64,000 bases of DNA from Sulfurospirillum sp. (GTDB lineage: Bacteria; Campylobacterota; Campylobacteria; Campylobacterales; Arcobacteraceae): positions 62,001 through 126,000 of the forward strand of contig JAKZMJ010000015.1 in assembly GCA_030491005.1 (NCBI GenBank). The letters are read 5' to 3'. Below, piece by piece: positions 45,931 through 60,243 of the stretch. The stretch's first letter is position 1. Each line of letters starts with the position of its first letter. The position numbers and the translations under genes were made by a program. Below the pieces are notes generated by a model. It was not told the DNA's origin, did not search any database, and saw only the letters and a list, made by a program, of their open reading frames with translations.

Positions 45931-46884
45931 ATGTTTAGTTTTTTTAAATTTATTCAAAATTTTATGCAAAGTTTAAGAAACAACAAAGGTCTTTGGTTTA
46001 CAATCCTTGGTGTGTCTTCTGTTGTAGGAATACTTTTGTCAATGTATTTATTAATAAGCATGACAAAAACTGTTTCTGTTGAAGTTTATACAAATATTTC
46101 TCAAACATATAAAAAGACTTTGAAAAATAAAATTGAAAAAAGAGAAGTAGAGTTTAAAAACTTATTATCATTAATTAAGACAGGAGAAACTTTTTTAAAG
46201 AATATTCAAGATAATAAATTAGGCAAAATTAACAATCAAATAAATTCCTTCAATGATAATTTTATAAAGGCTAAAGTAAATGATTTAAGCATTAAATTTT
46301 ATTCATCAAAAGATCAAATTAATCAGTATAGAAGTAGTATTAACTTTGTAATTAAGAATAAAGCTTCTAATTTTGGTATTGAAGTTTTACCTGAGGGTAT
46401 ATTTTTATTATTAATTGAACCAATTATTAAAAATAAAGAACTTTTAGGTGTTTTAGAAATAAAAGAACCTCTTTATTCTTTGAAAAAAGACTTTACTAAA
46501 GATAATGGTATCTTTTTATTCTTGCTTGATGAAAAAATGTTAAAAATATTATCTCCAAAAGCTAGAAATGGAAGATACAAGGTTATTATGAATAATTTGT
46601 ATGTTGAAGAGTTAAGATATAGCAGTTCTTTTTATGGGAAAATATTAGAAAAAGGAAAAGATGGTTTTAATCAATTATTAGATGATGGTTATTATCTTGA
46701 TAAAGTTTATTTTAAAACATATGATAAAATATCAGATATAAATGGTAATATTGTAGGTTATGTAGTCTTAGGTGAAGTAGTTGAAGGTAGTGGTGCATTT
46801 GTTAATATAGTAAATGATATGACAAAAACAGTTACTACCGTTGCTTTAGGTTTAGTAATTTCAATATTACTATTTATGTTTTAG
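45931..46884 (+). CDS. Two-TM protein with Cache-like extracytoplasmic domain
   Basis: 317 residues from ATG 45931, which follows TAAGG by 8 bases; the longer frame from 45859 lacks a ribosome site. One membrane helix lies at about 22-44 and a second at the very C-terminus (about 298-317). Between them is a roughly 250-residue periplasmic region whose SISFN-type helix, KASNFGIEVLPEGIFLLLIE and then PIIKNKELLGVLEIKEPLYS match double-Cache sensory domains of bacterial chemoreceptors and kinases. NGNIVGYVVLGEV is the second repeat-like stretch. There is no cytoplasmic output domain, so it must signal through a partner. First gene of the six-gene operon, 13 bases from the channel gene. Confidence 0.75.
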   Translation: MFSFFKFIQNFMQSLRNNKGLWFTILGVSSVVGILLSMYLLISMTKTVSVEVYTNISQTYKKTLKNKIEKREVEFKNLLSLIKTGETFLKNIQDNKLGKINNQINSFNDNFIKAKVNDLSIKFYSSKDQINQYRSSINFVIKNKASNFGIEVLPEGIFLLLIEPIIKNKELLGVLEIKEPLYSLKKDFTKDNGIFLFLLDEKMLKILSPKARNGRYKVIMNNLYVEELRYSSSFYGKILEKGKDGFNQLLDDGYYLDKVYFKTYDKISDINGNIVGYVVLGEVVEGSGAFVNIVNDMTKTVTTVALGLVISILLFMF

Positions 46885-46897
46885 AAGGTTATTAAAT

Positions 46898-48073
46898 ATG
46901 AGACGAATTAAAATTTTAAAAATCTTTTTTGTATTTATACTCTTTTTAGTTTTTTTAGTTTTTTCTAACTTTACTGTAATTAGTAATTTTTTTATGGCTA
47001 CTTTAACTTTTAATGTAGCTATTTCAACAATGTTTACAATTGGTTTAATAGTAGTTTATCAATCTGCAATTAGGCTTACTATACTTTCAGGAACATTTGG
47101 AATATTGGCATATAAAAAAGGAAAAGAATTAGAGTTTTACTTAAAGGGCATTACTAATGTATTTCCTGCAACTATTGCTTTTATGTTTGAAAAAAGAGCA
47201 CATAAAGGTGTTTTATATTTTACAAATAATGAGGCTAAAGATGTTTCAGAATGGTTAAGTGAACAATTTTTTAATCAAAAAGGTTATACAGGTTTTTTTG
47301 TAGGTACATCTTTAATGTTGGGGCTATTTGGAACATTTACAGGTTTACTTGTAGCAATTGATGAAATGGGTGCTATTATATTATCTTTTGGTGGAGATGA
47401 TATTGATTTAGGTGAAGTTATGACCAGCTTTGCAGGACCACTTAGTGGTATGTCTATTGGTTTTGCTTCATCTTTATTTGGTGTAGCTTCTGCTATTATA
47501 TTAAATATTATGCAATATATTTTAACAAGAAATCAAGCAGCTTTTTTAGAAGATGTTGAAGATTGGATGAAGGGCAAAATGATTGAATCACAAAGCTCAG
47601 AGGTATTAGAAGAAATCAAAGGTGGCTCACTTGGACATATATCTAATATAGCATCAGGTGGTATAGGAGGAGGCGGACAGTCTTCAGGTGGTGATATTTC
47701 AAGTGGTGCTTTAAATATCTTCATTGATACTATTTCAGAATTTACTGATAAATTAGATAAGGCTAATAATATGTCAAGTGATATGTATAGTGTTATTTCT
47801 AGTAATTTATTAGAAACCAATAATTCTAATGAAAAAGAAAAAATATTACTAGAGGGTATTTTAAATAATTTAAAAGAATTAAATGTTAATCAATTTTCTA
47901 ACTCAGCTATGATGGAAGAATCTTTACAAGATATTTCAAGTGTAATAATGGCAGAGCATAAAACAATGAAAAAAACTTTAAGCTTGCAAGAAGACAATAA
48001 TAAAATTTTATTAGAAATGGTATCAACATTGAATAATAAATTTGATAAACTTGAGTCTTCTTTTGATAAATAA
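46898..48073 (+). CDS. MotA/TolQ/ExbB-family proton channel protein
   Basis: 391 residues. The family core is seen in GFFVGTSLMLGLFGTFTGLLVA (first channel helix, split: GTSLMLGLFGTFTGLL), then GEVMTSFAGPLSGMSIGFAS and LFGVASAIILNIMQYIL. Two hydrophobic helices lie before residue 60. After the core, a glycine-rich linker (GGIGGGGQSSGG, about 255-268) leads to a charged, coiled-coil-like tail to 391. Such channels couple proton flow to work on periplasmic or outer-membrane partners. The next gene supplies the matching MotB/TolR-like subunit 11 bases downstream. It lacks the flagellar MotA cytoplasmic signature, and no flagellar genes are near. Confidence 0.9.
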   Translation: MRRIKILKIFFVFILFLVFLVFSNFTVISNFFMATLTFNVAISTMFTIGLIVVYQSAIRLTILSGTFGILAYKKGKELEFYLKGITNVFPATIAFMFEKRAHKGVLYFTNNEAKDVSEWLSEQFFNQKGYTGFFVGTSLMLGLFGTFTGLLVAIDEMGAIILSFGGDDIDLGEVMTSFAGPLSGMSIGFASSLFGVASAIILNIMQYILTRNQAAFLEDVEDWMKGKMIESQSSEVLEEIKGGSLGHISNIASGGIGGGGQSSGGDISSGALNIFIDTISEFTDKLDKANNMSSDMYSVISSNLLETNNSNEKEKILLEGILNNLKELNVNQFSNSAMMEESLQDISSVIMAEHKTMKKTLSLQEDNNKILLEMVSTLNNKFDKLESSFDK

Positions 48074-48084
48074 AAGTACCTACA

Positions 48085-48834
48085 ATGGCTAATAGATGTG
48101 AAGATGAATTTAATCCATGGCCTTCATTTGTTGATATTTTCTCATCAGTAATTCTAGTTTTATTACTTTTTTTATTGGTAATTTTAGTTAACTTGGGCTT
48201 TTATGCCCAATTTAAATATAAGGTTTCGTACACAGGTTCGATATCATCAGATGATCTTATTTTGAACGATAATCCAGTTGAAGTAAAAATAAAAGAAGAA
48301 ACGGTAGAAACTAAATCAAAAAAAGAAGCTGAAACAACAAAAGAAGCAAAAAAAATAATACAAGTACAAGCAGAACTTGCTAAACTACGGAAAATTATAA
48401 AAAAAGAAGAGTTAAAAAAAGGTATTAAAGGTGTCATATCTGGTGGAGTTGATGTATATGATGTAAAAGATGATGATAATAAATCCGAACAAACAATAAT
48501 ATTAAATGATGAATATATTATTGTTACATTTAAAGAAAATGAAATGTTTTTGGATAATTCATCAATGAAACAAATTCAAAGTTTTATAAAAAACATAAAA
48601 GATAAATACAAAATAAAGAAAATCATAATTAGTGCTTACGATATAAAAGGGCAAGTTAGTGCAACTATTACAAAACAAATTTCGCTAGCAAGGTCTATTG
48701 GTACTAGAAATTTAATACGAAAAATGGGTTATAATAAAAAAGATGTTAGAATAAATCTTAGAGGTATTACTAATATTAAAGAAAAAATCAAAAGTAATAA
48801 TGGTTATATAGTTGTAAGGGTTAAAAAACAATGA
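48085..48834 (+). CDS. MotB-like protein with OmpA-type C-terminal domain
   Basis: 249 residues. EFNPWPSFVDIFSSVILVLL carries one membrane helix (about 14-40) and Asp17, the position of the proton-binding aspartate of MotB. A charged coiled linker (about 60-120) follows. The C-terminal 110 residues form an OmpA/MotB fold: NDEYIIVTFKENEMFLDNSS, IIISAYDIKG, then QISLARSIGTRNLIRKMGY as the peptidoglycan-contact helix, and YIVVRVKKQ as the last strand. It would form the stator with the upstream channel protein and hold the peptidoglycan. Its stop overlaps the TolC start as ATGA. Confidence 0.87.
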   Translation: MANRCEDEFNPWPSFVDIFSSVILVLLLFLLVILVNLGFYAQFKYKVSYTGSISSDDLILNDNPVEVKIKEETVETKSKKEAETTKEAKKIIQVQAELAKLRKIIKKEELKKGIKGVISGGVDVYDVKDDDNKSEQTIILNDEYIIVTFKENEMFLDNSSMKQIQSFIKNIKDKYKIKKIIISAYDIKGQVSATITKQISLARSIGTRNLIRKMGYNKKDVRINLRGITNIKEKIKSNNGYIVVRVKKQ

Positions 48835-51680
48835 GAATAATATATAAAACAACATTATTGTTATTTATCTTATTTCCTTTGCTTTTATCTGGGCAAACAA
48901 AAAATGAACTATTAGAAAATGATAAAGATAAAAAATATATAATTCCAAAATATGTTGATGTCAGTAAAAAAATTAAAACTTATATATCTAAAGCTAATGC
49001 AAAAACAAATGATTATGTTAAAGTTAAGTTAATTGATGTTGTATTAGAAAGCTTGTCAAACAGTGATATATTAAAATCTGCTAAAGAAGAAGTAATAAAA
49101 AGTGAACTAGAATTAGAAAATGCTATATCTTCTTATTATCCATTAGTAAATTTTAAATACACTTTTGGAAAAACAAGAGCTTATCCTGGAGATAAAAAAG
49201 TTAAATACAAATATAATAAAGATAGGGCATATAACTTAACAATTAATCAAAATTTATATTCTGGTGGTTCTACTTATTACTCTGTGATTAATGCTAGAAA
49301 AAAATTATCTTACAATAAAAATAATTATGAAATATCTCTTAACAAAAATATAAAAAAATCAATTGAAGCATATTTTAAAGTGGTATTTACAAATAGAAAT
49401 TTGTTAATACACAAAAGAAATATCAAAACATTAAATAAAATTTTAAAGATAACACAATTAAAATTTGATGGTGGAGCCTTATCTTTAGGAGACATCACAT
49501 CAATTAAATTAAGTGTTACAAGTGCAAAACTAAAAGTACTAAAAATTGAATCAAAGTTTATTCAAGCACTAAGATATTATGAATATATTGTTGGAGTAAA
49601 CTTTAATAATACTTTACCATATGAAAAAAACTTTAATATTAATTTTATAGATTTTAAAAGTCTATTTAAAAGAGCATTAGCAAAAAATAAAAATCTTATT
49701 AATCATTATAAAAATATTGAAATAGAAAAAAATAATTTAAATATTACAAAAGCAGCTCTAAAACCAAAACTTGATTTAAAATTATCGTATGATAAAATTT
49801 TAGATAAAAATGATTTTACTATTAAGGAAAACACCGCTCAAGCAGAATTTAAATTAAGTTATAATTTATTTAATGGTGGTAAAGATTTAAATGCTATATT
49901 AAAAGTTTCTAGTACTATTAGAGATTTACATAATAAATTAAATGAAGCAATAAGAAAATTAAAATGGAACTTATCTAAGGCTTATATATCTGTACTATCT
50001 AATAAAGAATCATTGCAAAATAATGTTTTAGAAGTAAAAACATCAAGAAAAATGGTAAGGGCATACTGGCAAGCTTTTGAATTAGGTGAACAAGAATTAC
50101 AAGTATTACTTCAAGGACAAAAACAGCTTAATACTGCTGAAGCGGATTTAATTAAAAATGAACAAAGCTATATAAAAGATTTTTTTGATATTTTAAATTT
50201 AAGCGGAGATTTGTCATCATTTTTTGATGTAGACCCACAGGATATAAAATTTATTAATTTTTCAAAAAGTGATTATAAAACCAATATTTACACAAATAAG
50301 CATATTGATTTAAATTTAAACAATAAAAAGAAATTAACAAATAAGCCAAGTAAGTCTATGAATATTCCACTTCCTCAAATTACTTTGAATGAAAATATTA
50401 AGGCTTATATTAAGAAATTCTTTAATTTTAAAGATGAAGAGTATAGTTTAGAAATTTCTCCATTTAATAATATTTATGATGCATTTGAGTTTATTGAACA
50501 AAATGACATGGAAAATGAAGCTTTTTCTTATGATAGTGTAAACAATTATCGTATTAATAGCAAAATAATATTTGGGCATTATGAAACAAAAGAAATAGCC
50601 ATAAAACAAAAAGAAATATTAGAAAAAAAATATAAAAATAAAATATTTAAAATTAAAAAAATTAAAAAAATTAAAGTCTTATATCAGAAATATATTGATG
50701 GCTTAAAAGTTAAAAAAGAAAAAGTCAAAATACAAATTCTAGAAATAGTCAAGATTATTGAGAAAATTAAACAAGTTAAAAAACAAAAGATTTTTACATC
50801 AAATAAGATTTTTAAGAATACATTTTTGAATGAAGATGACGATAAATTCACTATTAGTATCGCATCTTTTATATCTTTAGATAAACTTGAAGAACTTGTA
50901 TTAAAATATAATTTATATGATCAATCATTATTCTTTTATTATAACGATTTTGGTAAATTAATAAAATTGGTTTATGGAGTTTATGATAATTATGAAGATG
51001 CTAAAAATGCTATATATAATTTTGATTCTGATTTAACAAGTCTTCATTTACCTATCATTGAAAAGATTTCTTCCATAAAAAAACTTTATACTCAAAATAT
51101 AAATATAAACGAAAAGAAAATAGAAAAAGTAGAATATGAATATATAAGTGTTAAATCTTTTAAAGAAAATCCAAAGTTGCTGGTAAATAAAAACGAAGAA
51201 AACGAAGAAAACGAAGAAAACGAAGAAGTAATTGAAAACGAAGAAAATGAAGAAAATGAAGAAAATGAAGAAAATGAAGAAAATGAAGAAAATGAAGAAA
51301 ATGAAGAAAATGAAGAAAATGAAGAAAATGAAGAAAATGAAGAAGTAATTGAAAATGAAGAAGTAAAAGAACTTTCTTTTAAAGAAAGATTTTTAAAAGC
51401 TCCAATATATTATTACACTATTAATATAGGTTCTTTTTCAAATATAAACTTGGCCAATAAATTTATAAAAAATAATAAACTTAAAGAAAAAGTTTTTCTT
51501 GTTTATACTAGTAAAAAATATATAAAAATAATGTATGGTATTTATCCAAATAAAATAGAAACAAAAAAGAACTTTAGTAAGCTTTCAAAGCTTATAAAAA
51601 GTAATAATCCATTTATTCAAAGAATTTATAGAGCTCAAGTTTTATACAAGAAAACTAACTTAACTGGATTTTCAAAGTGA
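48831..51680 (+). CDS. TolC-family outer-membrane channel with three SPOR-like repeats
   Basis: 949 residues, against about 430-500 for ordinary TolC. Signal peptide 1-21 is followed by an outer-membrane efflux domain (about 60-460: VLESLSNSDILKSAKEEVIK, the helical barrel repeats, and NLYSGGSTYYSV and YNLFNGGKDLNA as the two beta-strand turns). The next 490 residues hold three SPOR-like units: about 537-610, 671-744 (FTISIASFISLDKLEELVLK) and 860-934 (YYTINIGSFSNINLANKFIK). Between the last two is an acidic linker of NEE units. SPOR domains bind denuded septal glycan, so the channel may be anchored to peptidoglycan. It overlaps both neighbours by 4 bases. Confidence 0.85.
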   Translation: MRIIYKTTLLLFILFPLLLSGQTKNELLENDKDKKYIIPKYVDVSKKIKTYISKANAKTNDYVKVKLIDVVLESLSNSDILKSAKEEVIKSELELENAISSYYPLVNFKYTFGKTRAYPGDKKVKYKYNKDRAYNLTINQNLYSGGSTYYSVINARKKLSYNKNNYEISLNKNIKKSIEAYFKVVFTNRNLLIHKRNIKTLNKILKITQLKFDGGALSLGDITSIKLSVTSAKLKVLKIESKFIQALRYYEYIVGVNFNNTLPYEKNFNINFIDFKSLFKRALAKNKNLINHYKNIEIEKNNLNITKAALKPKLDLKLSYDKILDKNDFTIKENTAQAEFKLSYNLFNGGKDLNAILKVSSTIRDLHNKLNEAIRKLKWNLSKAYISVLSNKESLQNNVLEVKTSRKMVRAYWQAFELGEQELQVLLQGQKQLNTAEADLIKNEQSYIKDFFDILNLSGDLSSFFDVDPQDIKFINFSKSDYKTNIYTNKHIDLNLNNKKKLTNKPSKSMNIPLPQITLNENIKAYIKKFFNFKDEEYSLEISPFNNIYDAFEFIEQNDMENEAFSYDSVNNYRINSKIIFGHYETKEIAIKQKEILEKKYKNKIFKIKKIKKIKVLYQKYIDGLKVKKEKVKIQILEIVKIIEKIKQVKKQKIFTSNKIFKNTFLNEDDDKFTISIASFISLDKLEELVLKYNLYDQSLFFYYNDFGKLIKLVYGVYDNYEDAKNAIYNFDSDLTSLHLPIIEKISSIKKLYTQNININEKKIEKVEYEYISVKSFKENPKLLVNKNEENEENEENEEVIENEENEENEENEENEENEENEENEENEENEENEENEEVIENEEVKELSFKERFLKAPIYYYTINIGSFSNINLANKFIKNNKLKEKVFLVYTSKKYIKIMYGIYPNKIETKKNFSKLSKLIKSNNPFIQRIYRAQVLYKKTNLTGFSK
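51192..51362 (+). repeat. 9-bp tandem repeat encoding Asn-Glu-Glu units in the TolC-like gene
   Basis: AACGAAGAA or AATGAAGAA is repeated 17 times: 4 units, VIE, 12 units, VIE, 1 unit. The first five units (four before the first VIE and the first after it) use AAC and the rest AAT. Unit length is a multiple of three, so slippage changes length without breaking the frame. Confidence 0.9.
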
Positions 51681-53872
51681 ATCTATCAAAATATAAACTT
51701 TTTCACAAATATAACAATACTATAACTAGAAATATTTTTATACTATTTGGTATTTTGTTTATATTATTTATTTTTTCTTCTTATGTATTTTTTAATGATT
51801 ATAAGACTAATATAATTATGAAATCTAAAAATGAATATAAATTTAATATAGAATATTTAAATCTACAATTTGAAAAATATTTAATAAATAATGATAATAA
51901 AAAATTAATAGAAAACTTAAACAATAATTTTAATAGTAAATTCATCTCTAAAATTGATTTTAAATTCAAAAACTTTTTATTTGATAAAAATACACTTTTT
52001 TTACAAACTAAAAATTTAGAAAAAATACATTGGAATATTTTGGATATATCAATTGATGCAAAATATGGAAAAATCAAGAAGCTTACTAATTCTCAAACTT
52101 ATCAATATATTCCATTAGATAATAAAATACAAATAAAAGATATTCCTATTAAATATCAAATACGCACTCAAGATGATATCAAACAATATTTGCTTCATTT
52201 AAATTTTGGTAATATTCAAAAAATATTTTTTCAACAAAATAAATTTAAAATACCTTCATGGTTTATGTATATTATTCAACCTGATATAAGAAGTATTGAA
52301 AAAGAATTACACATATCAAATATTAAATTTGGAAATATTGTTTATAATATTGATACAAGTAGTGTGAGCTATGAACTGTATAATTTATTTATTAATCTTA
52401 TTTTATTTACATTAATCTTATTTATTCCAATTTTAATAATTTTAAACTATTATCATCTTTTTGTCTTAAAAAAATATGTAACGGAGCCAATTCAGTATTT
52501 AAATTCTTATTTAGATAAGTTAAATGATAATAAGTTTGAAATTTTAAATAAAAATAATTTTGAGGGAAGAGATGAATTAAAAGAGCTAACTCAAAAAATT
52601 AGTAAAATTTCTGGAAAATTTTCTTCTTTAATAAATGAAGTTAATGTTGCTAAAGAAACTATTGAAAGACAAGCTTTAATTGATCAAGTAACAGGCTTAG
52701 CAAACAGACAAAGATTTGATTTTGACATAAAAAGTATGTTTATTAACGAGCAAAATGGTTTTGTTTTTTTACTTAAAGTTGATTGCTTAGGACAACTTAG
52801 TCAAAATTATGATGTAAGTTATATAAATAGTTTCCTTGAAGCATATATTAATATTATTAAAAACACTATATATAAATATAGTAAAACTGATATTATGTTA
52901 TATAGATTTTATGGTTCAGATTTTGCAATTATAATAAAAGAATATGATTTTAGCACCTGTACTGAGATATTACAACTTACTATTAAAAATATAAATACTG
53001 GAATAAAAGATATATTTGATACTTCAGATAATATAATACTAATAGGTGGAACAAAGTTTGATTTATATGGAAGTGTAGATTCTATTTTAAAATCTTCGTA
53101 TCAAGCCCTAGAAATTGCAAGAAAACAGGGAAATAATACACTTTATATAAATAGTGAATCAAATACATTATTTGATACCTTACATGATAATATTGTCAAT
53201 ATGATAAATGATGGAACATTTGAGATTAATTTTACTTTATCAACTTATTTATTTGATGAACCAAAAGAATTAATTATGCAAGAAGTAAAAGCTGTCTTAC
53301 TTGATAAAAACAATAGTAAAATTGACATTGGGTCTTTTATATCAATTGCAAAACATATTCAAAAAGTTGATGCATTTGATAAGTTAATGGTAGAAAAAAC
53401 ATTAGCTTATATAAATGGTATTGATAAAAAATATTTTATAGCTATAAACATATCTTTTTCTTCAATTAACAAATTTGAATTTATGCAATGGCTAGAAGAT
53501 ATTTTAAATAAATATAATTCTATTAAAAAATATATAGTATTCAGTGTAACTTCCTATACTGCTAGTTTAAATAAAAAATCATTTGAAAAATTTGTTAAGA
53601 AAATAGATGAAATAGGCTCTAAAGTTTTACTAAAACGTTATAAAATAGATGAATACCCTTTACAGTTTTTAAATAATTTGCCAATAGGTTTTATTAGAAT
53701 TGCTAAAGATTATACTAATAACTTTAGTTCTGATATGATTAAAAAACATAAAGTTAAAAGTATATTGATTTATGGTGAGTTAAATGAAATAGAAATCATA
53801 GCAGATAAAGTTGATCTTGATGCTGATTATGATTTACTAGAAAGATCAGGAACATATGCAATTTGTAGATAA
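51677..53872 (+). CDS. LapD-like degenerate GGDEF/EAL membrane protein
   Basis: 731 residues. Membrane helices at about 20-39 and 237-262 bracket a roughly 195-residue periplasmic domain. A HAMP-like linker (VTEPIQYLNSYLDKLNDN) follows, then a GGDEF domain starting LIDQVTGLANRQRFDFD, in which the catalytic GGDEF is replaced by FYGSDF (about 409-414). The EAL domain follows (from about 514), with QEVK where E-A-L is expected. Both catalytic motifs are thus lost. This matches LapD-type c-di-GMP receptors, which signal to the periplasm to control a protease or adhesin. The start is GTG 51677, overlapping the TolC stop. Confidence 0.85.
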   Translation: MNLSKYKLFHKYNNTITRNIFILFGILFILFIFSSYVFFNDYKTNIIMKSKNEYKFNIEYLNLQFEKYLINNDNKKLIENLNNNFNSKFISKIDFKFKNFLFDKNTLFLQTKNLEKIHWNILDISIDAKYGKIKKLTNSQTYQYIPLDNKIQIKDIPIKYQIRTQDDIKQYLLHLNFGNIQKIFFQQNKFKIPSWFMYIIQPDIRSIEKELHISNIKFGNIVYNIDTSSVSYELYNLFINLILFTLILFIPILIILNYYHLFVLKKYVTEPIQYLNSYLDKLNDNKFEILNKNNFEGRDELKELTQKISKISGKFSSLINEVNVAKETIERQALIDQVTGLANRQRFDFDIKSMFINEQNGFVFLLKVDCLGQLSQNYDVSYINSFLEAYINIIKNTIYKYSKTDIMLYRFYGSDFAIIIKEYDFSTCTEILQLTIKNINTGIKDIFDTSDNIILIGGTKFDLYGSVDSILKSSYQALEIARKQGNNTLYINSESNTLFDTLHDNIVNMINDGTFEINFTLSTYLFDEPKELIMQEVKAVLLDKNNSKIDIGSFISIAKHIQKVDAFDKLMVEKTLAYINGIDKKYFIAINISFSSINKFEFMQWLEDILNKYNSIKKYIVFSVTSYTASLNKKSFEKFVKKIDEIGSKVLLKRYKIDEYPLQFLNNLPIGFIRIAKDYTNNFSSDMIKKHKVKSILIYGELNEIEIIADKVDLDADYDLLERSGTYAICR

Positions 53873-53884
53873 GGTTATGAAAAA

Positions 53885-54607
53885 ATGTTAAAATATTTAT
53901 TGTTAATATTAATGATTACAGGGTGTGCATATAAAAAAGATATTAAAATAAAAAAAGACCCTTTTGTTTCTTCTTTTGTATATTATAATATTTCAAAAGA
54001 TGCAGTTATGGAAGCTGCCAAAAAAGTTTTTGTATTTACTAATAAAAAGTTTGTATTAAATTCATATAGAAATTTACTAACTGCAAGAAAAACAAATATT
54101 ACTAATTATCTTTTTACTACAGTACTAAAAGAAGATATATGGTTTATAAATGTTAGAGAAATAAATAATAAAACAATTGCAAAAGTTTATACTCAAAGAA
54201 TTTATAATTCAAATGATAATATTAAATATTTAAGTAAAGACTCACATAAAATACTTTGGAAAAGAATTAATTATTTTTTATCTATTGAAAAAAACTGGGA
54301 AAGTTGTTTTTTATATCTAAATAGTTTGTGTGATATAAAAGGACAAAAATATTTTAATCAACCATCTAATAATGATAAAATTAAAAATATACTAATATCT
54401 CAAAGACATAAAAGCAAAGATATTGTTGATATAAATGATGATATTTTATTAAATGACAGTTTTTCAATTACTAAAAATAAAAAAGATATTTTGGATGTAA
54501 AAAATGTCTTAAAAGAAAATTCTAATGAAGAACAAAGAAAGCCAGATGCTAATATCGAAAAAATTTTAGACCAAATAAAAAAAGAAACCAATAATTCTTT
54601 AAAGTAA
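53885..54607 (+). CDS. Lipoprotein, last gene of the TolC/LapD-like operon
   Basis: 240 residues with a signal peptide and lipobox at MITGC (Cys at about 15). It then has a roughly 150-residue folded part (KDAVMEAAKKVFVFTNKKFV, SYRNLLTARKTNITNYLFTT, FLSIEKNWESCFLYLNSLCD) with two cysteines (in ESC and LCD). A charged, low-complexity tail follows. No catalytic Cys-His-Asp triad of LapG-type proteases is visible. It is 12 bases after the LapD-like gene and probably completes the envelope complex. Function unknown. Confidence 0.75.
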   Translation: MLKYLLLILMITGCAYKKDIKIKKDPFVSSFVYYNISKDAVMEAAKKVFVFTNKKFVLNSYRNLLTARKTNITNYLFTTVLKEDIWFINVREINNKTIAKVYTQRIYNSNDNIKYLSKDSHKILWKRINYFLSIEKNWESCFLYLNSLCDIKGQKYFNQPSNNDKIKNILISQRHKSKDIVDINDDILLNDSFSITKNKKDILDVKNVLKENSNEEQRKPDANIEKILDQIKKETNNSLK

Positions 54608-54728: not shown

Positions 54729-55691
54729 ATGTATAGAATACTATTATTAATAACGATTTTGATTTCATCAAATATATTTGCTGATACTATTTATGTATCA
54801 AATGAAAAAGACAATACCTTAAGTATAATTAACTCAAAAACTAACAAAGTTATAAAAGTTATAGAAGTTGGTCAAAGACCAAGAGGTATTATATTAAACA
54901 AAGACAAAAGTTTGTTATATATTTGTGCAAGTGATGATGATACTGTTCAAATACTTGATACAAAAACAAATAAAATAATAGGTGATTTACCTTCAGGTGA
55001 TGACCCTGAACAGTTTGCCCTACATCCAAATAACAAACATTTGTACATAGCAAATGAAGATGATGCAGTTATAACCGTAGTTGATGTACATAAAAAAACA
55101 GTAGTAACTCAAATTGACGTGGGAGTTGAACCTGAGGGAATGGCTATAAGTCCTGATGGAAGTGTGGCTATTAACTCATCTGAGACATCAAATTTTTTGC
55201 ATTGGATTGATACAAAAACATATAAAATTATACACAATACTCCTGTTGATCAAAGACCTAGACATATAGAATTTAGTAAAAGTGGGCATAAAGTATGGGC
55301 AAGTTCTGAAATAGGTGGAACCGTAGCCATTATTGATACAAAAACAAAAAAGAAGCTAAAAACAATATCTTTTAAAATATCTGGAATTTTTAAAGATAAG
55401 ATACAACCAGTTGGTATAAAATTAACAAGTGATGGAAAATATGCTTTTGTTGCACTTGGACCTGCTAATCATATTGCTGTAATTAATGCTAAAACATATG
55501 AAGTAATCAAGTATTTACTTGTAGGAAAAAGAGTTTGGCAAATGGCATTTACTAATAATGAAAAGAAACTATATACTGCAAATGGAGTTAGTGGTGATGT
55601 TTCTGTAATAGATATTGAAAGTTTAAAAGTTAAAACAACTATAAAAGTAGGACGTTACCCTTGGGGCTTAGCAGTAATTCCACAAAACTAA
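54729..55691 (+). CDS. PQQ-associated YVTN beta-propeller protein
   Basis: 320 residues with signal peptide 1-18 (ISSNIFA cleavage), so periplasmic. It has seven-bladed YVTN-type repeats: TIYVSNEKDNTLSIINSKTN, LYICASDDDTVQILDTKTNK, LYIANEDDAVITVVDVHKKT and KLYTANGVSGDVSVIDIESL. It matches the propeller associated with PQQ-dependent catabolism (TIGR03866 type). It is 2 bases before the ATP-binding protein. Its role, probably electron transfer or protein binding alongside the dehydrogenase, is not established. Confidence 0.85.
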   Translation: MYRILLLITILISSNIFADTIYVSNEKDNTLSIINSKTNKVIKVIEVGQRPRGIILNKDKSLLYICASDDDTVQILDTKTNKIIGDLPSGDDPEQFALHPNNKHLYIANEDDAVITVVDVHKKTVVTQIDVGVEPEGMAISPDGSVAINSSETSNFLHWIDTKTYKIIHNTPVDQRPRHIEFSKSGHKVWASSEIGGTVAIIDTKTKKKLKTISFKISGIFKDKIQPVGIKLTSDGKYAFVALGPANHIAVINAKTYEVIKYLLVGKRVWQMAFTNNEKKLYTANGVSGDVSVIDIESLKVKTTIKVGRYPWGLAVIPQN

Positions 55692-55693
55692 AT

Positions 55694-56422
55694 ATGAGTT
55701 TTGCATTAGAACTTAAAAATATATCATATAGTTATAAAAATAAACAAGCTTTAAAAAATGTAAACCTAAGTATTAAAGAAGGAAGCTTTTTTGTACTTTT
55801 AGGTTTAAATGCTGCTGGTAAATCTACTATATTTTCATTAATTACTAGACTTTTATCTTTACAAAATGGAGATATTTTTATAAATTCTTATTCAATTAAA
55901 AATTATAAAAAAGCTTTACTGAGTGTAGGTATTGTGTTTCAGGAACCTACTTTAGATTTAGATTTAAGTGTTAGACAAAACTTATATTATTATGGTTGTA
56001 TGCAAGGACTTAATTTTAAAGAAACAATGAATTCTATTAAACAAGAAATACAAAATCTTGATTTAGAAAATAAGCTTGATATTTATGTGAGAGATTTAAA
56101 TAGTGGGCATAGAAGAAGAGTAGAAATTTTAAGAGCTTTAATTAATGAACCAAACATTCTACTTCTTGATGAAGCTACAGTTGGACTTGATATAAAATCT
56201 CGTTTTGAAATAATAAAATATATAAGAAATATTGTGGAAAAAAGAAATATTTCTGTTTTATGGATAACACATTTATTTGATGAACTCGAAAATACCGATA
56301 GTATTGCTATTATTAAAGATGGTAATATTACAGAAGAAGGAATATTAAAAGATATACTTTTAAAACATGATAAAAATTCTATAAATGAAGTTTTTACATA
56401 TTTGAATGACATAAAATTATGA
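55694..56422 (+). CDS. ABC transporter ATP-binding protein, PQQ-cassette type
   Basis: 242 residues from ATG 55694. The longer frame to 55661 overlaps the propeller gene. Walker A is GLNAAGKSTIF, with Ala-Ala-Gly-Lys in place of the usual Gly-x-Gly-Lys. The signature is LNSGHRRRVEILRAL in place of LSGGQ. Walker B is ILLLDEATVGLD and the switch His lies in WITHLFDEL. This set is typical of the ATPase in PQQ-associated ABC systems (TIGR03864 type). Its partner permease overlaps by 4 bases. Substrate unknown. Confidence 0.88.
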   Translation: MSFALELKNISYSYKNKQALKNVNLSIKEGSFFVLLGLNAAGKSTIFSLITRLLSLQNGDIFINSYSIKNYKKALLSVGIVFQEPTLDLDLSVRQNLYYYGCMQGLNFKETMNSIKQEIQNLDLENKLDIYVRDLNSGHRRRVEILRALINEPNILLLDEATVGLDIKSRFEIIKYIRNIVEKRNISVLWITHLFDELENTDSIAIIKDGNITEEGILKDILLKHDKNSINEVFTYLNDIKL

Positions 56423-57207
56423 AAAAATTATATTATTGTGCTATTGGAATTATTTATAAAGAATTATTGCGTTTTATAAAACAAAAAGCAAGATTTTTTT
56501 CTGCACTTGTACGACCATTATTATGGCTTTTCATTTTTTCACTTGGTTTTAAAACAGCACTTGGACTTGCTATTATTCCACCTTATGAAACATATATTAC
56601 TTATGAAACATATATAGTTCCTGGTCTTATTGGAATGATTATGTTATTTAATGGCATGCAAAGTTCATTAAGTATGCTTTTTGATAGAGAAATGGGTTCA
56701 ATGAAAATACTTTTAAGTTCACATATATCAAGAAATTATTTGCTTTTTTGTAAGATGTTAGCTACTTCTTTAGTCTCAACTATTCAAGCTATGACTTTTT
56801 TAATCATATCTTATTTTTATGGAATTAAGATGGAGTTTTTAGCTTATATTTTAGTCATACCAGTTATTTTATTTACTTCTATTATTCTAAATGCTTTTGC
56901 ACTTTTTATATCTTCTGTTATAAAACAGCTAGAAAACTTTGCTTCTGTTATGAATTTTGTAATATTTCCTATGTTTTTTTTATCATCTGCTTTATATCCT
57001 TTGTGGAAGATTAAAGATTCTTCAATTTTGATGTACAATATATCTTCGTACAATCCTTTTACTTATATAGTTGAATTTATTCGTTTTACTTTATATTTAA
57101 AATTTGATTTAAATATTCTTTTAATACTTATTGCCTTTTTTGTAACAAGCTTAATTTGTGCATTCGTAGGATATAAAAACAAATATATATCTTCTAAAAA
57201 TAAATAA
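56419..57207 (+). CDS. ABC transporter permease, PQQ-cassette type
   Basis: 262-residue ABC-2 type permease with six predicted membrane helices: about 27-43, 61-88, 110-135, 140-165, 173-195 and 228-250. LVRPLLWLFIFSLGFK and NFVIFPMFFLSSALYPLWK are recognisable ABC-2 stretches. It is homologous in place and type to PedC, the permease found beside the quinoprotein dehydrogenases of Pseudomonas. Start overlaps the ATPase stop (ATGA). Confidence 0.85.
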   Translation: MKKLYYCAIGIIYKELLRFIKQKARFFSALVRPLLWLFIFSLGFKTALGLAIIPPYETYITYETYIVPGLIGMIMLFNGMQSSLSMLFDREMGSMKILLSSHISRNYLLFCKMLATSLVSTIQAMTFLIISYFYGIKMEFLAYILVIPVILFTSIILNAFALFISSVIKQLENFASVMNFVIFPMFFLSSALYPLWKIKDSSILMYNISSYNPFTYIVEFIRFTLYLKFDLNILLILIAFFVTSLICAFVGYKNKYISSKNK

Positions 57208-57238
57208 TATACTTTACTTATTATTAAAATAAAGTTTG

Positions 57239-57253
57239 CCTATATTCATGCTA
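57239..57253 (+). promoter_or_regulatory. 15-bp motif CCTATATTCATGCTA upstream of the dehydrogenase gene
   Basis: Differs by one base from the motif at 54677-54691, and lies about 70 bases upstream of the dehydrogenase ATG. The two sites precede the two transcription-unit starts of the PQQ cassette. Confidence 0.55.
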
Positions 57254-57324
57254 CACATCTTAAGTATACTTCAAAATATGCGCGCTTTGTTTTACATGCG
57301 AGTAAAAAAATCAAGGAGAAGATG

Positions 57325-59118
57325 ATGTTCAAAAAACATTTATTAACAAGTACAGTTATAGTGTCAATAGCTGTATTAATTAGTGCTTGTGCTGTAGGTA
57401 ATAGTCCAAGTGCAACAAAGATTGATAAACCTAGTTTTGCACCTGTAAAATATTCTGATATTTTAAACGATGCAACAACAGTAGAAGATGTAGTATCTTA
57501 TGGCTTAGGTCAAAAAGCACAAAGATATTCACCTATTAAAAGTATCAACAAAGATACAGTCAAGAATTTAGTTCCTGTATGGAATTTTTCTTTTGGTGGT
57601 GAGAAACAAAGAGGTCAAGAATCTCAAGCTTTGGTTAAAGATGGAGTTATGTATGTAACAGCATCTTATTCAAGAATATATGCTATTGATACTTTAAGCG
57701 GTGATGAAATATGGCAATATGATGCAAGACTTCCAGCTGATATTTTACCTTGTTGTGATGTGATTAATAGAGGAGCTGCTTTATATGAAGATTTAGTTAT
57801 TTTTGGAACATTAGATGCAAAACTAGTTGCACTTGACAGAAAAACAGGAAAAGTTAGATGGAAAAAGAAAATTGCTAATCATAAAGAAGGTTATTCTTAC
57901 ACAGCTGCACCTTTGATAGTTAATGATTTGCTAATTACTGGAAACTCTGGTGGTGAGTTTGGAGTTGTAGGACAATTAGATGCAAGAAACCCATTAACAG
58001 GTGAAATAGTTTGGACCAGACCTATGGTTGAAGGACATATGGGTTATTTAAATGGTAAAGAAAATGGAATTACAGGAGTTACAAATGCTTCATGGCCAGG
58101 AGATATTTGGAAAAATGGAGGTGCTGCACCTTGGAATGGAGTTACATACGATCCAGATGCTAATTTAATCTATGTTCCAACAGGAAATCCAGCTCCTTGG
58201 AATTCTCATGAAAGACCAGGAGATAATTTATATTCTGCTTCAAGAGTAGCAATTAACCCTGATACTGGAAAAATTGTTTGGCATTTTCAAACAACACCTC
58301 ATGATGGTTGGGACTATGATGGAATTTCAGAACTTGTTTTATTTGAATATGAACAAAATGGTAAAACAATAAAAGCAGGAGCAACTGCTGATAAAAATGG
58401 TTTCTTTTATGTAATTGATAGGATTACAGGAAAATATATAAGATCACTTCCTTTTGTAGATAAAATTACTTGGGCAAAAGGTATGGATGAAAATGGTCGA
58501 CCTATTGTAAATGAAGAAAATCGTCCAGGTAAACCAGTAGGTAGCAAACAAGGAAAATCTGTATTTTCAGTTCCTTCATTCTTAGGTGGAAAAAACTGGA
58601 ACCCAATGGCATATTCACAAAAAACAGGATTGTTTTATGTACCTGCAAATGAATGGGGAATGGATATCTGGAATAAAACTGCTACTTATAAAAAAGGTGC
58701 TGCTTATATGGGTGCTGGATTCACAATTAAACCAGTATATGAAGATCACATAGGAGCATTAAAAGCTATTGATCCAGTTACTGGAAAAATTAAATGGATT
58801 TATAAAAATAAAGCACCATTATGGGCAGGAGTACTTACAACTGCTGGTGGTTTAGTATTTACAGGAACTCCTGAGGGTAAATTCTTAGCACTTGATGATG
58901 AAACAGGAAAAATCTTATACTCATTTCAAGTAGGTTCTGGAATAGTTAGTTCACCAATTACTTGGATACAAAATGGTGAACAATATATTGCCGTCGTTTC
59001 AGGTTGGGGTGGAGCTGTTCCTTTATGGGGTGGTGAAGTTGCAAAAACTGTTAAGTATTTAAATCAAGGTGGAACTGTTCATGTGTTTAAATTGTATTCA
59101 CCAAGAGTAGTAAAGTAA
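57325..59118 (+). CDS. PQQ-dependent alcohol dehydrogenase, lanthanide-type signature
   Basis: 597 residues from ATG 57325, preferred to 57322 because AGGAG then lies 6 bases away. (Residue numbers below count from 57322.) Lipobox-like LISAC near residue 21 suggests a lipoprotein, otherwise a periplasmic enzyme. The eight-bladed PQQ propeller carries W-motif blades ([12 protein letters not shown]). Other features are the Cys144-Cys145 vicinal disulfide, metal-ligand Glu212 (SGGEFGVVG) and Asn289 (TGNPAPWN). The catalytic-base stretch [12 protein letters not shown] has Asp331 and the additional Asp333, which marks lanthanide-dependent XoxF/PedH-type enzymes. There is no cytochrome domain. Electron acceptor is not in the window. 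Confidence 0.9.
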
Positions 59119-59151
59119 ACAAATTATTAATCTTAAAAAAAGGAGGATAAA

Positions 59152-59226
59152 ATGAATTGGGAAACACCAACTTTTGTTGATAATAGATTCGGATTTGAAG
59201 TGACAATGTATATTTGCCATGTTTAA
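59152..59226 (+). CDS. pqqA: PQQ precursor peptide PqqA
   Basis: 24 residues. The core FGFEVTMYICHV holds the Glu and Tyr joined by the E-x3-Y pattern (Glu16 and Tyr20) from which PQQ is made. The N-terminal MNWETPTFVDNR is typical of the leader. A strong AAGGAGGATAAA ribosome site precedes ATG 59152. It is followed by a hairpin and then pqqB, so it is the first gene of the synthesis operon. Confidence 0.92.
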   Translation: MNWETPTFVDNRFGFEVTMYICHV

Positions 59227-59241
59227 AACATAATATTATAT

Positions 59242-59277
59242 AAAGCTAGCTAGCATCATAGTATGTTAGCTAGCTTT
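59242..59277 (+). terminator. Hairpin between pqqA and pqqB (attenuator-like)
   Basis: AAAGCTAGCTA pairs with TAGCTAGCTTT (11 bp), extended by four further pairs (one of them G-T), with a 6-base loop, then TATCTTTTAATATTT. It should end many transcripts after pqqA and let a few run into pqqB, giving excess precursor. The known pqq operons show the same arrangement. Confidence 0.8.
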
Positions 59278-59328
59278 TATCTTTTAATATTTAGCAATAA
59301 TAAAAGATAAAAGCTAAGAGGAAAGAAT

Positions 59329-60243
59329 ATGAAAATAGAAGTTTTAGGTTCAAGTGCTGGAGGTGGACTTCCTCAGTTTAACTGTAATTGTAATAACTGT
59401 AAAGGTTATAGAGAAGGTAAAAAAACTATTAAAAGAAGAACGCAAAGTTCCATTACATTAAGTGAAGATGGAATTAATTGGGTTTTATTTAATGCCTCAC
59501 CTGATATTTTAGAACAAATACATAATTCACCTTTTTTACAACCTCAAAGTCTAAGAGAAAGTAAAATCAAAGCAATTGTATTTATAGATGCACAAATTGA
59601 TCATACAACAGGACTTTTAAGCTTAAGAGAAGGTACACCTTTTGATGTATACTGCACAAAAGAAGTAAATGAAGAATTAAATACATCATATCCTATATTT
59701 AAAATGCTAAAAAACTGGAATGGTGGAGGTGTTAAATATAATCAAATAATTCCAAACAAAGAAAAATTTAACATTCCTATTATGCCAAATCATGAATTTT
59801 ATGCATTAAGTTTAATATCAAACGCACCACCTTATTCACTTTATAGAGATAAACCACGCAATGGTGATAATATTGGAATTGTAATTATAAATAAAAAAAC
59901 TAAAAAAAGACTTTTTTATATACCAGGACTTGGTGTTTTAGAAAAACATATAATAGAAGAAATGAGTAAAGCTGATATTTTATTAATAGAAGGAACTTTA
60001 TGGACTAATGATGAGATGATAAAAGGAAAGTTTTCTTCTAAATTAGGTACAGATATGGGACATGTTCCTTTAAATGGGGAGAATGGTTTAATAAAAGTAT
60101 TAGATACTTTAAGCAAACCTAGAAAAATATTGATACATATAAATAATACAAATCCAATTTTAGATGAAAGTACAAAAGAATTTAAAGAATTAAGTTCACA
60201 TGGTATTGAAGTTTCTTATGATGGAATGAGCTTAGAAATTTAG
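59329..60243 (+). CDS. pqqB: PQQ biosynthesis protein PqqB
   Basis: 304-residue metallo-beta-lactamase-fold iron oxygenase that hydroxylates the PqqE/PqqF product. MKIEVLGSSAGGGLPQFNCN starts the protein. The CNCNNC zinc cluster lies near 22-27. Metal ligands lie in IDAQIDHTTGLLSLRE and MPNHEFYALSL, then DMGHVPLNGENG. Length matches. It starts with AAGAGGAAAGAAT. Confidence 0.95.
   Translation: MKIEVLGSSAGGGLPQFNCNCNNCKGYREGKKTIKRRTQSSITLSEDGINWVLFNASPDILEQIHNSPFLQPQSLRESKIKAIVFIDAQIDHTTGLLSLREGTPFDVYCTKEVNEELNTSYPIFKMLKNWNGGGVKYNQIIPNKEKFNIPIMPNHEFYALSLISNAPPYSLYRDKPRNGDNIGIVIINKKTKKRLFYIPGLGVLEKHIIEEMSKADILLIEGTLWTNDEMIKGKFSSKLGTDMGHVPLNGENGLIKVLDTLSKPRKILIHINNTNPILDESTKEFKELSSHGIEVSYDGMSLEI

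What the first reader, a model, noticed from the sequence alone, without database searches (positions are those of the whole stretch)
45931..54607. Proton-driven, c-di-GMP-linked TolC machine: an undescribed-looking six-gene operon
Six genes with 4-base overlaps or gaps of 11-13 bases combine parts rarely seen together: a Cache-like two-TM sensor without output domain, a MotA/TolQ/ExbB channel, a MotB/OmpA-like stator subunit, a TolC with three SPOR-like repeats, a LapD-like degenerate GGDEF/EAL receptor and a lipoprotein. LapD systems normally pair with a type I ABC exporter (LapB), an adaptor (LapC), the protease LapG and a giant adhesin. None of these is present. The stator pair could energise the TolC channel, or position it. 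Each part is seen in sequence, and the joint function is inference.
Basis: partly seen in the sequence, partly recalled or inferred. Interest (0 to 1): 0.85.

Follow-up and report, generated by a model that had tools for sequence, protein, structure and literature searches.

The report
Proton-stator module for giant adhesin export
Six neighbouring genes encode the accessory half of a giant-adhesin (type I) secretion system, in which a flagellar-stator-like proton channel probably holds a protein of more than 12,000 residues in its outer-membrane pore, resembling Salmonella's SiiAB but combined with a LapD-like receptor.

Summary
The six genes are real and tightly packed. The same contig carries the missing half about 91 kb away: a 12,317-aa RTX adhesin, a LapB/LssB-type ABC transporter and HlyD. 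Two LapG genes lie elsewhere. In relatives the order is adhesin-ABC-HlyD-A-B-C-TolC-LapD-F, and a 121-kb Arcobacter plasmid carries it whole. Among 397 Campylobacterota genomes, the MotA-like gene and a distinctive adhesin N-terminal module occur in exactly the same 29 genomes, one copy each. The MotB-like protein's best PDB fold match is Salmonella SiiA's peptidoglycan-binding domain, and its proton Asp and one Arg are invariant. I conclude that this is a SiiAB-like stator dedicated to one giant adhesin, probably controlling its retention. It is unlikely to power TolC. The LapD part is optional (absent from 8 of 29 loci). Its catalytic residues are gone, and the adhesins lack the LapG [T/A/P]AAG site, so classical LapD-LapG control is not supported. 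Whether LapD signals to the stator instead is open. Novelty: new variant of a known kind.

The parts
45931..46884 (+). Gene A: two-TM protein with a ~230-aa periplasmic domain, weakly Cache-like; ends directly after a near-invariant second TM (MTKTVTTVALGLVISILLFMF), no output domain
   Evidence: ORF; start supported by relatives; invariant TM; weak dCache_3 hits
46819..46881 (+). Gene A second TM, the most conserved part of the protein; candidate intramembrane contact to the stator (inference)
46898..48073 (+). Gene B: MotA/TolQ/ExbB-like channel subunit (SiiB-like role) with a long C-terminal helical tail
   Evidence: ZorA (MotA/ExbB/TolQ) PADLOC E 7.5e-8; orthologue L103 over PF01618 cut-off; fold ExbB/TolQ/ZorA; found in 29 of 397 genomes (strong hits)
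47303..47353 (+). GTSLMLGLFGTFTGLLV segment of B; T146 of the G-T-F motif invariant in 30 sequences
48085..48834 (+). Gene C: MotB/SiiA-like subunit with one TM, linker and an OmpA-like peptidoglycan-binding domain
   Evidence: PDB fold search: SiiA 6qvp first (E 1.1e-5, TM 0.80 on target), then FopA1 OmpA-like domain and H. pylori MotB
48133..48135 (+). Codon of D17 of C, the putative proton-carrying TM aspartate, invariant in 30 sequences
48493..48831 (+). OmpA-like domain of C; R203 invariant in 30 sequences
48831..51680 (+). Gene D: TolC-family outer-membrane channel with a ~480-aa C-terminal extension
   Evidence: PF02321 E 3.4e-37, TIGR01844 E 1.8e-43
51411..51620 (+). SPOR domain of D (peptidoglycan binding expected from the family)
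   Evidence: PF05036
51190..51344 (+). 9-bp tandem repeat (17 copies) encoding the Asn-Glu-Glu-rich linker before SPOR
51677..53872 (+). Gene E: LapD-like receptor, degenerate GGDEF (YGSDF) and EAL (EVK; DDFG to KRYK)
   Evidence: NCBIfam LapD best model but 118 of 1020 bits; PDB best LapD 3pjw E 6e-30, periplasmic match 4u64; residues
53885..54607 (+). Gene F: small lipoprotein (lipobox ITGC), no known family

Best explanation
The six genes are the accessory and outer-membrane half of a type I secretion system for one giant RTX adhesin. Its other half (12,317-aa adhesin, LapB/LssB-type ABC, HlyD) lies 91-149 kb away on the same contig. B and C form a MotA/MotB-like (5:2 expected from the family), proton-driven, peptidoglycan-anchored stator. 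It works like Salmonella SiiAB: it engages the periplasmic N-terminal module of the adhesin, or the TolC/HlyD complex holding it, and uses proton-motive force to keep the adhesin in, or release it from, the TolC pore. A is a third membrane subunit that senses the periplasm and contacts the stator through its invariant second TM. The SPOR tail of TolC and the OmpA-like domain of C fix the complex to the cell wall. E, a catalytically dead LapD-like receptor, is an optional regulatory input. Shown: gene content, synteny, co-occurrence, folds of B and C, invariant Asp and Arg. Inferred: retention as the function, proton flux, contacts, and the roles of A, E and F.
For: ABC-HlyD-A-B-C-TolC-LapD-F synteny across Arcobacteraceae and further families, and a complete plasmid copy with the adhesin. 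B and the adhesin N-terminal module occur in the identical 29 of 397 genomes, one each, even where they lie on different contigs; their distance matrices correlate with r = 0.91. The C fold matches the SiiA PG-binding domain best; the B fold matches ExbB/TolQ/ZorA. D17 and R203 of C and T146 of B are invariant in 30 sequences. The ABC/HlyD pair at C15:207996-211409 has no TolC beside it in this genome, while the C5 pair has its own and the third pair has a partial TolC-like neighbour. In SPI4, SiiAB form a proton channel controlling retention and release of the T1SS adhesin SiiE (PMC6272769, PMC12607715).
Against: No experiment. Both AlphaFold models have modest confidence (pLDDT 60 and 63) and single chains say nothing about contacts. 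The SiiB and SiiE sequences were not compared; the link is by the fold of one domain and by system logic. Co-occurrence is confounded by shared ancestry, since 15 of the 29 genomes are from one family. The roles of A, E and F rest on position and conservation only.
Confidence: 0.7

Rival explanations
1. Classical Lap control with extra parts: E binds c-di-GMP and sequesters one of the two LapG proteases, which otherwise cuts the adhesin behind its N-terminal module; the stator is secondary.
For: E is closest to LapD in both cytoplasmic and periplasmic parts. Two LapG genes are in the genome. LapG is present in 19 of 21 genomes with the LapD-type locus and 4 of 8 without it. In a close relative (L024) the operon sits beside azlCD, which in this genome sits beside lapG.
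Against: None of 29 adhesins has the [T/A/P]AAG site in the linker behind the module (one has SAAAAG about 287 residues further on), while a LapA-type adhesin in a relative does have TAAG. Six LapD-bearing adhesins have no di-alanine at all within 330 residues behind the module. LapG is absent from G328 and G350, which carry the LapD gene. The ExLxR arginine and catalytic residues of E are lost in 20 of 20, although the LapG-linked LapD paralogue of this genome shows the same losses.
Confidence: 0.17
2. The stator energises secretion itself, for example by pulling the giant protein through TolC or by opening TolC.
For: C and TolC overlap by 4 bases and the substrate is enormous; a motor could help with its export.
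Against: An LssB-type ABC ATPase with HlyD accompanies the system in relatives, and SPI4 deletions of siiA/siiB leave SiiE secretion unaffected (PMC12607715).
Confidence: 0.08
3. The six genes are a separate machine unrelated to T1SS adhesins (Zorya-like defence, Tol-like envelope maintenance).
For: B hits ZorA models, and the six genes are isolated from the T1SS genes in this genome.
Against: No ZorC/D/E partners, C has no ZorB hit, synteny with ABC/HlyD/adhesin in relatives and exact co-occurrence with the adhesin module.
Confidence: 0.03

Closest known systems
Salmonella SPI4 siiABCDEF (SiiA/SiiB proton channel, SiiE giant adhesin, SiiCDF T1SS)
   Same: T1SS with ABC, HlyD and TolC, a giant adhesin, and a dedicated MotA/MotB-like pair whose MotB-like protein has a SiiA-type peptidoglycan-binding fold
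   Different: Here an additional two-TM protein A, a LapD-like receptor, a lipoprotein, SPOR on TolC, an RTX adhesin with open frames up to 13,000 aa instead of BIg repeats, different gene order, Campylobacterota hosts
Lap system of Pseudomonas fluorescens (LapA, LapBCE, LapD, LapG)
   Same: LssB-type ABC, HlyD, TolC, giant RTX adhesin, LapD-like protein, LapG in the genome
   Different: Adds a stator; lapG not in the locus; adhesin N-terminal module is not the LapA retention module and lacks [T/A/P]AAG; LapD residues degenerate beyond LapD itself
Dvh operon of Desulfovibrio vulgaris (DVU1012-1020)
   Same: RTX adhesin operon with TolC, ABC, HlyD and LapG/LapD analogues; DVU1013-1018 are assigned to the T1SS, more genes than TolC, ABC and HlyD need (PMC13090378)
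   Different: DvhD is PAS/HD-GYP; whether the surplus genes are relatives of A-C could not be tested here
Zorya ZorAB, ExbBD, TolQR, MotAB (5:2 proton-driven stators)
   Same: Fold of B and of C, TM aspartate of C
   Different: Genome neighbourhood and partners; B of the window scores below PF01618, C below the PF00691 cut-off

Membership tests
SiiAB-type T1SS accessory stator | MotA-like plus MotB-like pair encoded with an adhesin T1SS | tested here: met
SiiAB-type T1SS accessory stator | MotB-like protein with the SiiA peptidoglycan-binding fold and essential Arg | tested here: met
   SiiA 6qvp is the top PDB fold match; R203 invariant; equivalence of R203 to SiiA R162/R167 not tested
SiiAB-type T1SS accessory stator | Sequence homology to SiiA/SiiB | tested here: inconclusive
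   profile search of solved-structure sequences did not find SiiA; SiiB sequence not available here
SiiAB-type T1SS accessory stator | Proton flux and PMF-dependent adhesin retention | not testable with these tools
   only the invariant TM Asp is seen
Lap (LapD-LapG-LapA) system | LapD-like receptor with degenerate GGDEF-EAL | tested here: met
   (far below the NCBIfam equivalog cut-off)
Lap (LapD-LapG-LapA) system | c-di-GMP-binding residues retained in EAL (ExLxR arginine) | tested here: not met
   absent in 20 of 20; also absent in the LapG-linked paralogue, so binding itself is undecided
Lap (LapD-LapG-LapA) system | LapG protease encoded in the genome | tested here: met
   not in the locus and missing in G328 and G350
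Lap (LapD-LapG-LapA) system | Adhesin with LapG site [T/A/P]AAG after the retention module | tested here: not met
   no site in the linker of 29 adhesins, positive control positive
LapBCE-type T1SS for giant RTX adhesins | LssB-type ABC with C39-like domain, HlyD, TolC, RTX substrate | tested here: met
Zorya (ZorAB plus ZorCD or ZorE) | ZorB and cytosolic effector partners in the locus | tested here: not met
   gene content
Flagellar MotAB | Membership in MotA and MotB families | tested here: not met
   below PF01618 and PF00691 cut-offs; the genome has a separate MotAB

The most novel reading that the evidence does not exclude
A LapD-like receptor was rewired from a protease to a motor: instead of sequestering LapG, it gates a proton-driven stator (A-B-C) that clamps or releases a giant adhesin whose distinct N-terminal module has no protease site. 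This would be a non-proteolytic, reversible, PMF-powered clutch for surface adhesion.
Probability: 0.3. Interest if true: 0.85.

Novelty: new variant of a known kind. Interest (0 to 1): 0.62.

Why it matters
How SiiAB uses proton-motive force on SiiE is described as unclear (PMC12607715). Here is a second, widespread and natural set of such systems (29 of 397 sampled Campylobacterota genomes, four families) in which stator and adhesin module co-occur without exception. The adhesin's anchoring module is defined by sequence, and LapD is present in some loci and absent from others. That makes 'what does the stator hold, and what tells it to let go' directly testable. It also shows that one bacterial group keeps two different anchoring types for giant adhesins, LapG-cleavable and stator-linked, sometimes in the same genome (L102).

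Tried and rejected
Isolated six-gene machine without exporter: rejected by synteny and by the genome search. Zorya defence: rejected, only ZorA-like channel similarity. Classical LapG release: weakened by the missing cleavage motif, kept as a rival. hhalign of B and C against single MotA/TolQ/OmpA proteins of the same genome gave only weak scores. Sequence-profile searches of the PDB with B, C and A found nothing relevant; structure search was needed. Plasmid searches for distant relatives outside Arcobacter found none. An attempt to reach Desulfovibrio vulgaris sequences failed. The 'three SPOR repeats' could not be confirmed beyond one. No paper was found that describes LapD/LapG in Arcobacter or this gene set in Campylobacterota; the library is incomplete.

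Full report
OBSERVATION. The window lies at C15:62001-126000 of a 2.69-Mb, 33-contig, Arcobacteraceae-like genome. Six genes on the + strand at 45931-54607 are spaced by 13, 11, -4, -4 and 12 bases.

GENES. A: two TMs around a periplasmic domain, only weakly Cache-like, with a near-invariant second TM at its very end. B: no Pfam hit itself, but hits to ZorA models annotated MotA/ExbB/TolQ (E 7.5e-8), an orthologue above the PF01618 cut-off, and a model (pLDDT 60) whose best PDB matches are ExbB, TolQ and ZorA. C: the model (pLDDT 63) matches the SiiA peptidoglycan-binding domain 6qvp best (E 1.1e-5, TM 0.80 on the target), then FopA1 OmpA-like and H. pylori MotB. In 30 sequences D17 in the TM and R203 in the OmpA-like domain of C, and the GTF threonine of B, never vary. 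D: TolC with one detectable SPOR domain, the linker before it coded by a 9-bp tandem repeat. E: nearest to LapD by NCBIfam (118 bits against a cut-off of 1020) and by PDB profile search (3pjw E 6e-30, periplasmic match 4u64). F: lipoprotein without family.

The same genome has three LssB-type ABC transporters and three HlyD adaptors, two LapG homologues and a giant RTX ORF of 12,317 aa at C15:220349-257302, minus strand. The pair at C15:207996-211409 lies downstream of that giant ORF, with methyltransferase/TPR-type genes between, and has no TolC beside it; the C5 pair has its own TolC and the third pair has a partial TolC-like neighbour. In relatives this ABC/HlyD pair (55-82% identical) lies immediately upstream of gene A.

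SYNTENY. A profile of B found 33 of 397 Campylobacterota genomes, 29 of them strongly. Reading the surroundings gave ABC-HlyD-A-B-C-TolC-LapD-F followed by a Sel1-repeat-type gene in most loci of families f1 and f7 and in G240. In f10 genus g36 and in f9 the core A, B, C and adhesin occurs without LapD and F. The whole locus, adhesin included, also sits on the 121-kb plasmid p121_Kiel_2759 of Arcobacter sp. AZ-2023 (CP146529.1), there with the ABC and LapD genes each split in two. So the six genes are conserved together, LapD/F are separable from the stator core, and this genome and a near relative (L024, operon next to azlCD instead) show the operon detached from its ABC/HlyD/adhesin half.

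CO-OCCURRENCE. The adhesins of these systems begin with a ~130-aa module (FVRPGDE...GGDIV...P..G..TFVS) not in Pfam. A profile of it hits exactly the same 29 genomes as B, one copy each, in open frames up to 13,090 aa. In 23 genomes the two lie within 1.4-46 kb on one contig, in this genome 148 kb apart, in five on different contigs. Distances among B proteins and among modules correlate with r = 0.91, not reached in 2000 permutations. Shared descent inflates this, but the pattern is patchy over four families.

IS IT A LAP SYSTEM? Partly. LapG occurs in 19 of 21 genomes with the LapD-type locus and in 4 of 8 without it, but it is common in the phylum (133 of 397), never inside the stretches read around the locus, and missing in G328 and G350. 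Two of the 21 (G292, G304) were counted as LapD-type from their synteny although the stretch read ends before LapD. LapG orthologues cut a [T/A/P]AAG motif (PMC13090378). None of 29 adhesins has it in the linker after the module; a LapA-type adhesin of a relative (L102) does. The EAL catalytic residues and the ExLxR arginine are lost in all 20 E proteins. The LapG-linked LapD paralogue of this genome has lost them too, so c-di-GMP binding is undecided.

MECHANISM. In Salmonella SPI4 SiiA and SiiB form a proton channel that controls retention and release of the giant adhesin SiiE, uncoupling with CCCP lowers retention, siiA/siiB deletions do not stop secretion, and SiiA binds peptidoglycan (PMC6272769, PMC12607715). 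The present system has parts of the same kind, dedicated to one adhesin type. The best-supported reading is a wall-anchored, proton-driven retention device for the adhesin in TolC, with A as sensor or third subunit and E as optional regulator. Shown by computation: parts, folds, invariant residues, synteny, co-occurrence. Inferred: proton flow, contacts, function.

NOVELTY. A stator serving a T1SS adhesin is known (SiiAB), and LapD control of T1SS adhesins is known. Their combination, the A subunit, the module and the distribution were not found in the papers I could search. D. vulgaris DVU1013-1018 are assigned to a T1SS (PMC13090378) and hold more genes than TolC, ABC and HlyD require, so a related set may already be deposited there; I could not test it. 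Hence: new variant of a known kind.

Noticed in passing
genome contig C15:220349-257302 and 216324-220331 (loci L041, L047, L048): The 12,317-aa adhesin ORF is followed by a 1,335-aa ORF in another frame that continues the same repeats: a frameshift, real or from assembly.
   Followed up: partly
genome contig C15, before 156000 to 174328 (locus L038): Another giant ORF with MARTX-like repeats, followed by its own ABC, HlyD and a TolC-like fragment; not examined further.
   Followed up: no
genome contig C15:198484-200701 and C26:32436-34149: A ZorAB-like MotA/OmpA pair, apparently present twice in the assembly.
   Followed up: no
genome contigs C2:180157-191594 and C23:40260-51697: Two contigs share ABC genes with identical scores and spacing, which suggests a redundant or duplicated assembly stretch.
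   Followed up: no
L102:17063-18238 and L102:1-2715: One genome carries a LapA-type retention module with TAAG and, close by, the stator-linked adhesin module: two anchoring types side by side.
   Followed up: partly
CP146529.1 (L080): The complete ~45-kb adhesin locus lies on a plasmid, with the ABC and LapD genes each split in two.
   Followed up: partly
window 54729-60243: Beta-propeller protein, ABC exporter pair, PQQ-dependent dehydrogenase-like and PqqB-like proteins: looks like a PQQ alcohol-oxidation cluster in an Arcobacter-like genome (read by eye only).
   Followed up: no
window 51190-51344: 9-bp tandem repeat, 17 copies, in frame in the TolC linker; length may vary between strains.
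   Followed up: no
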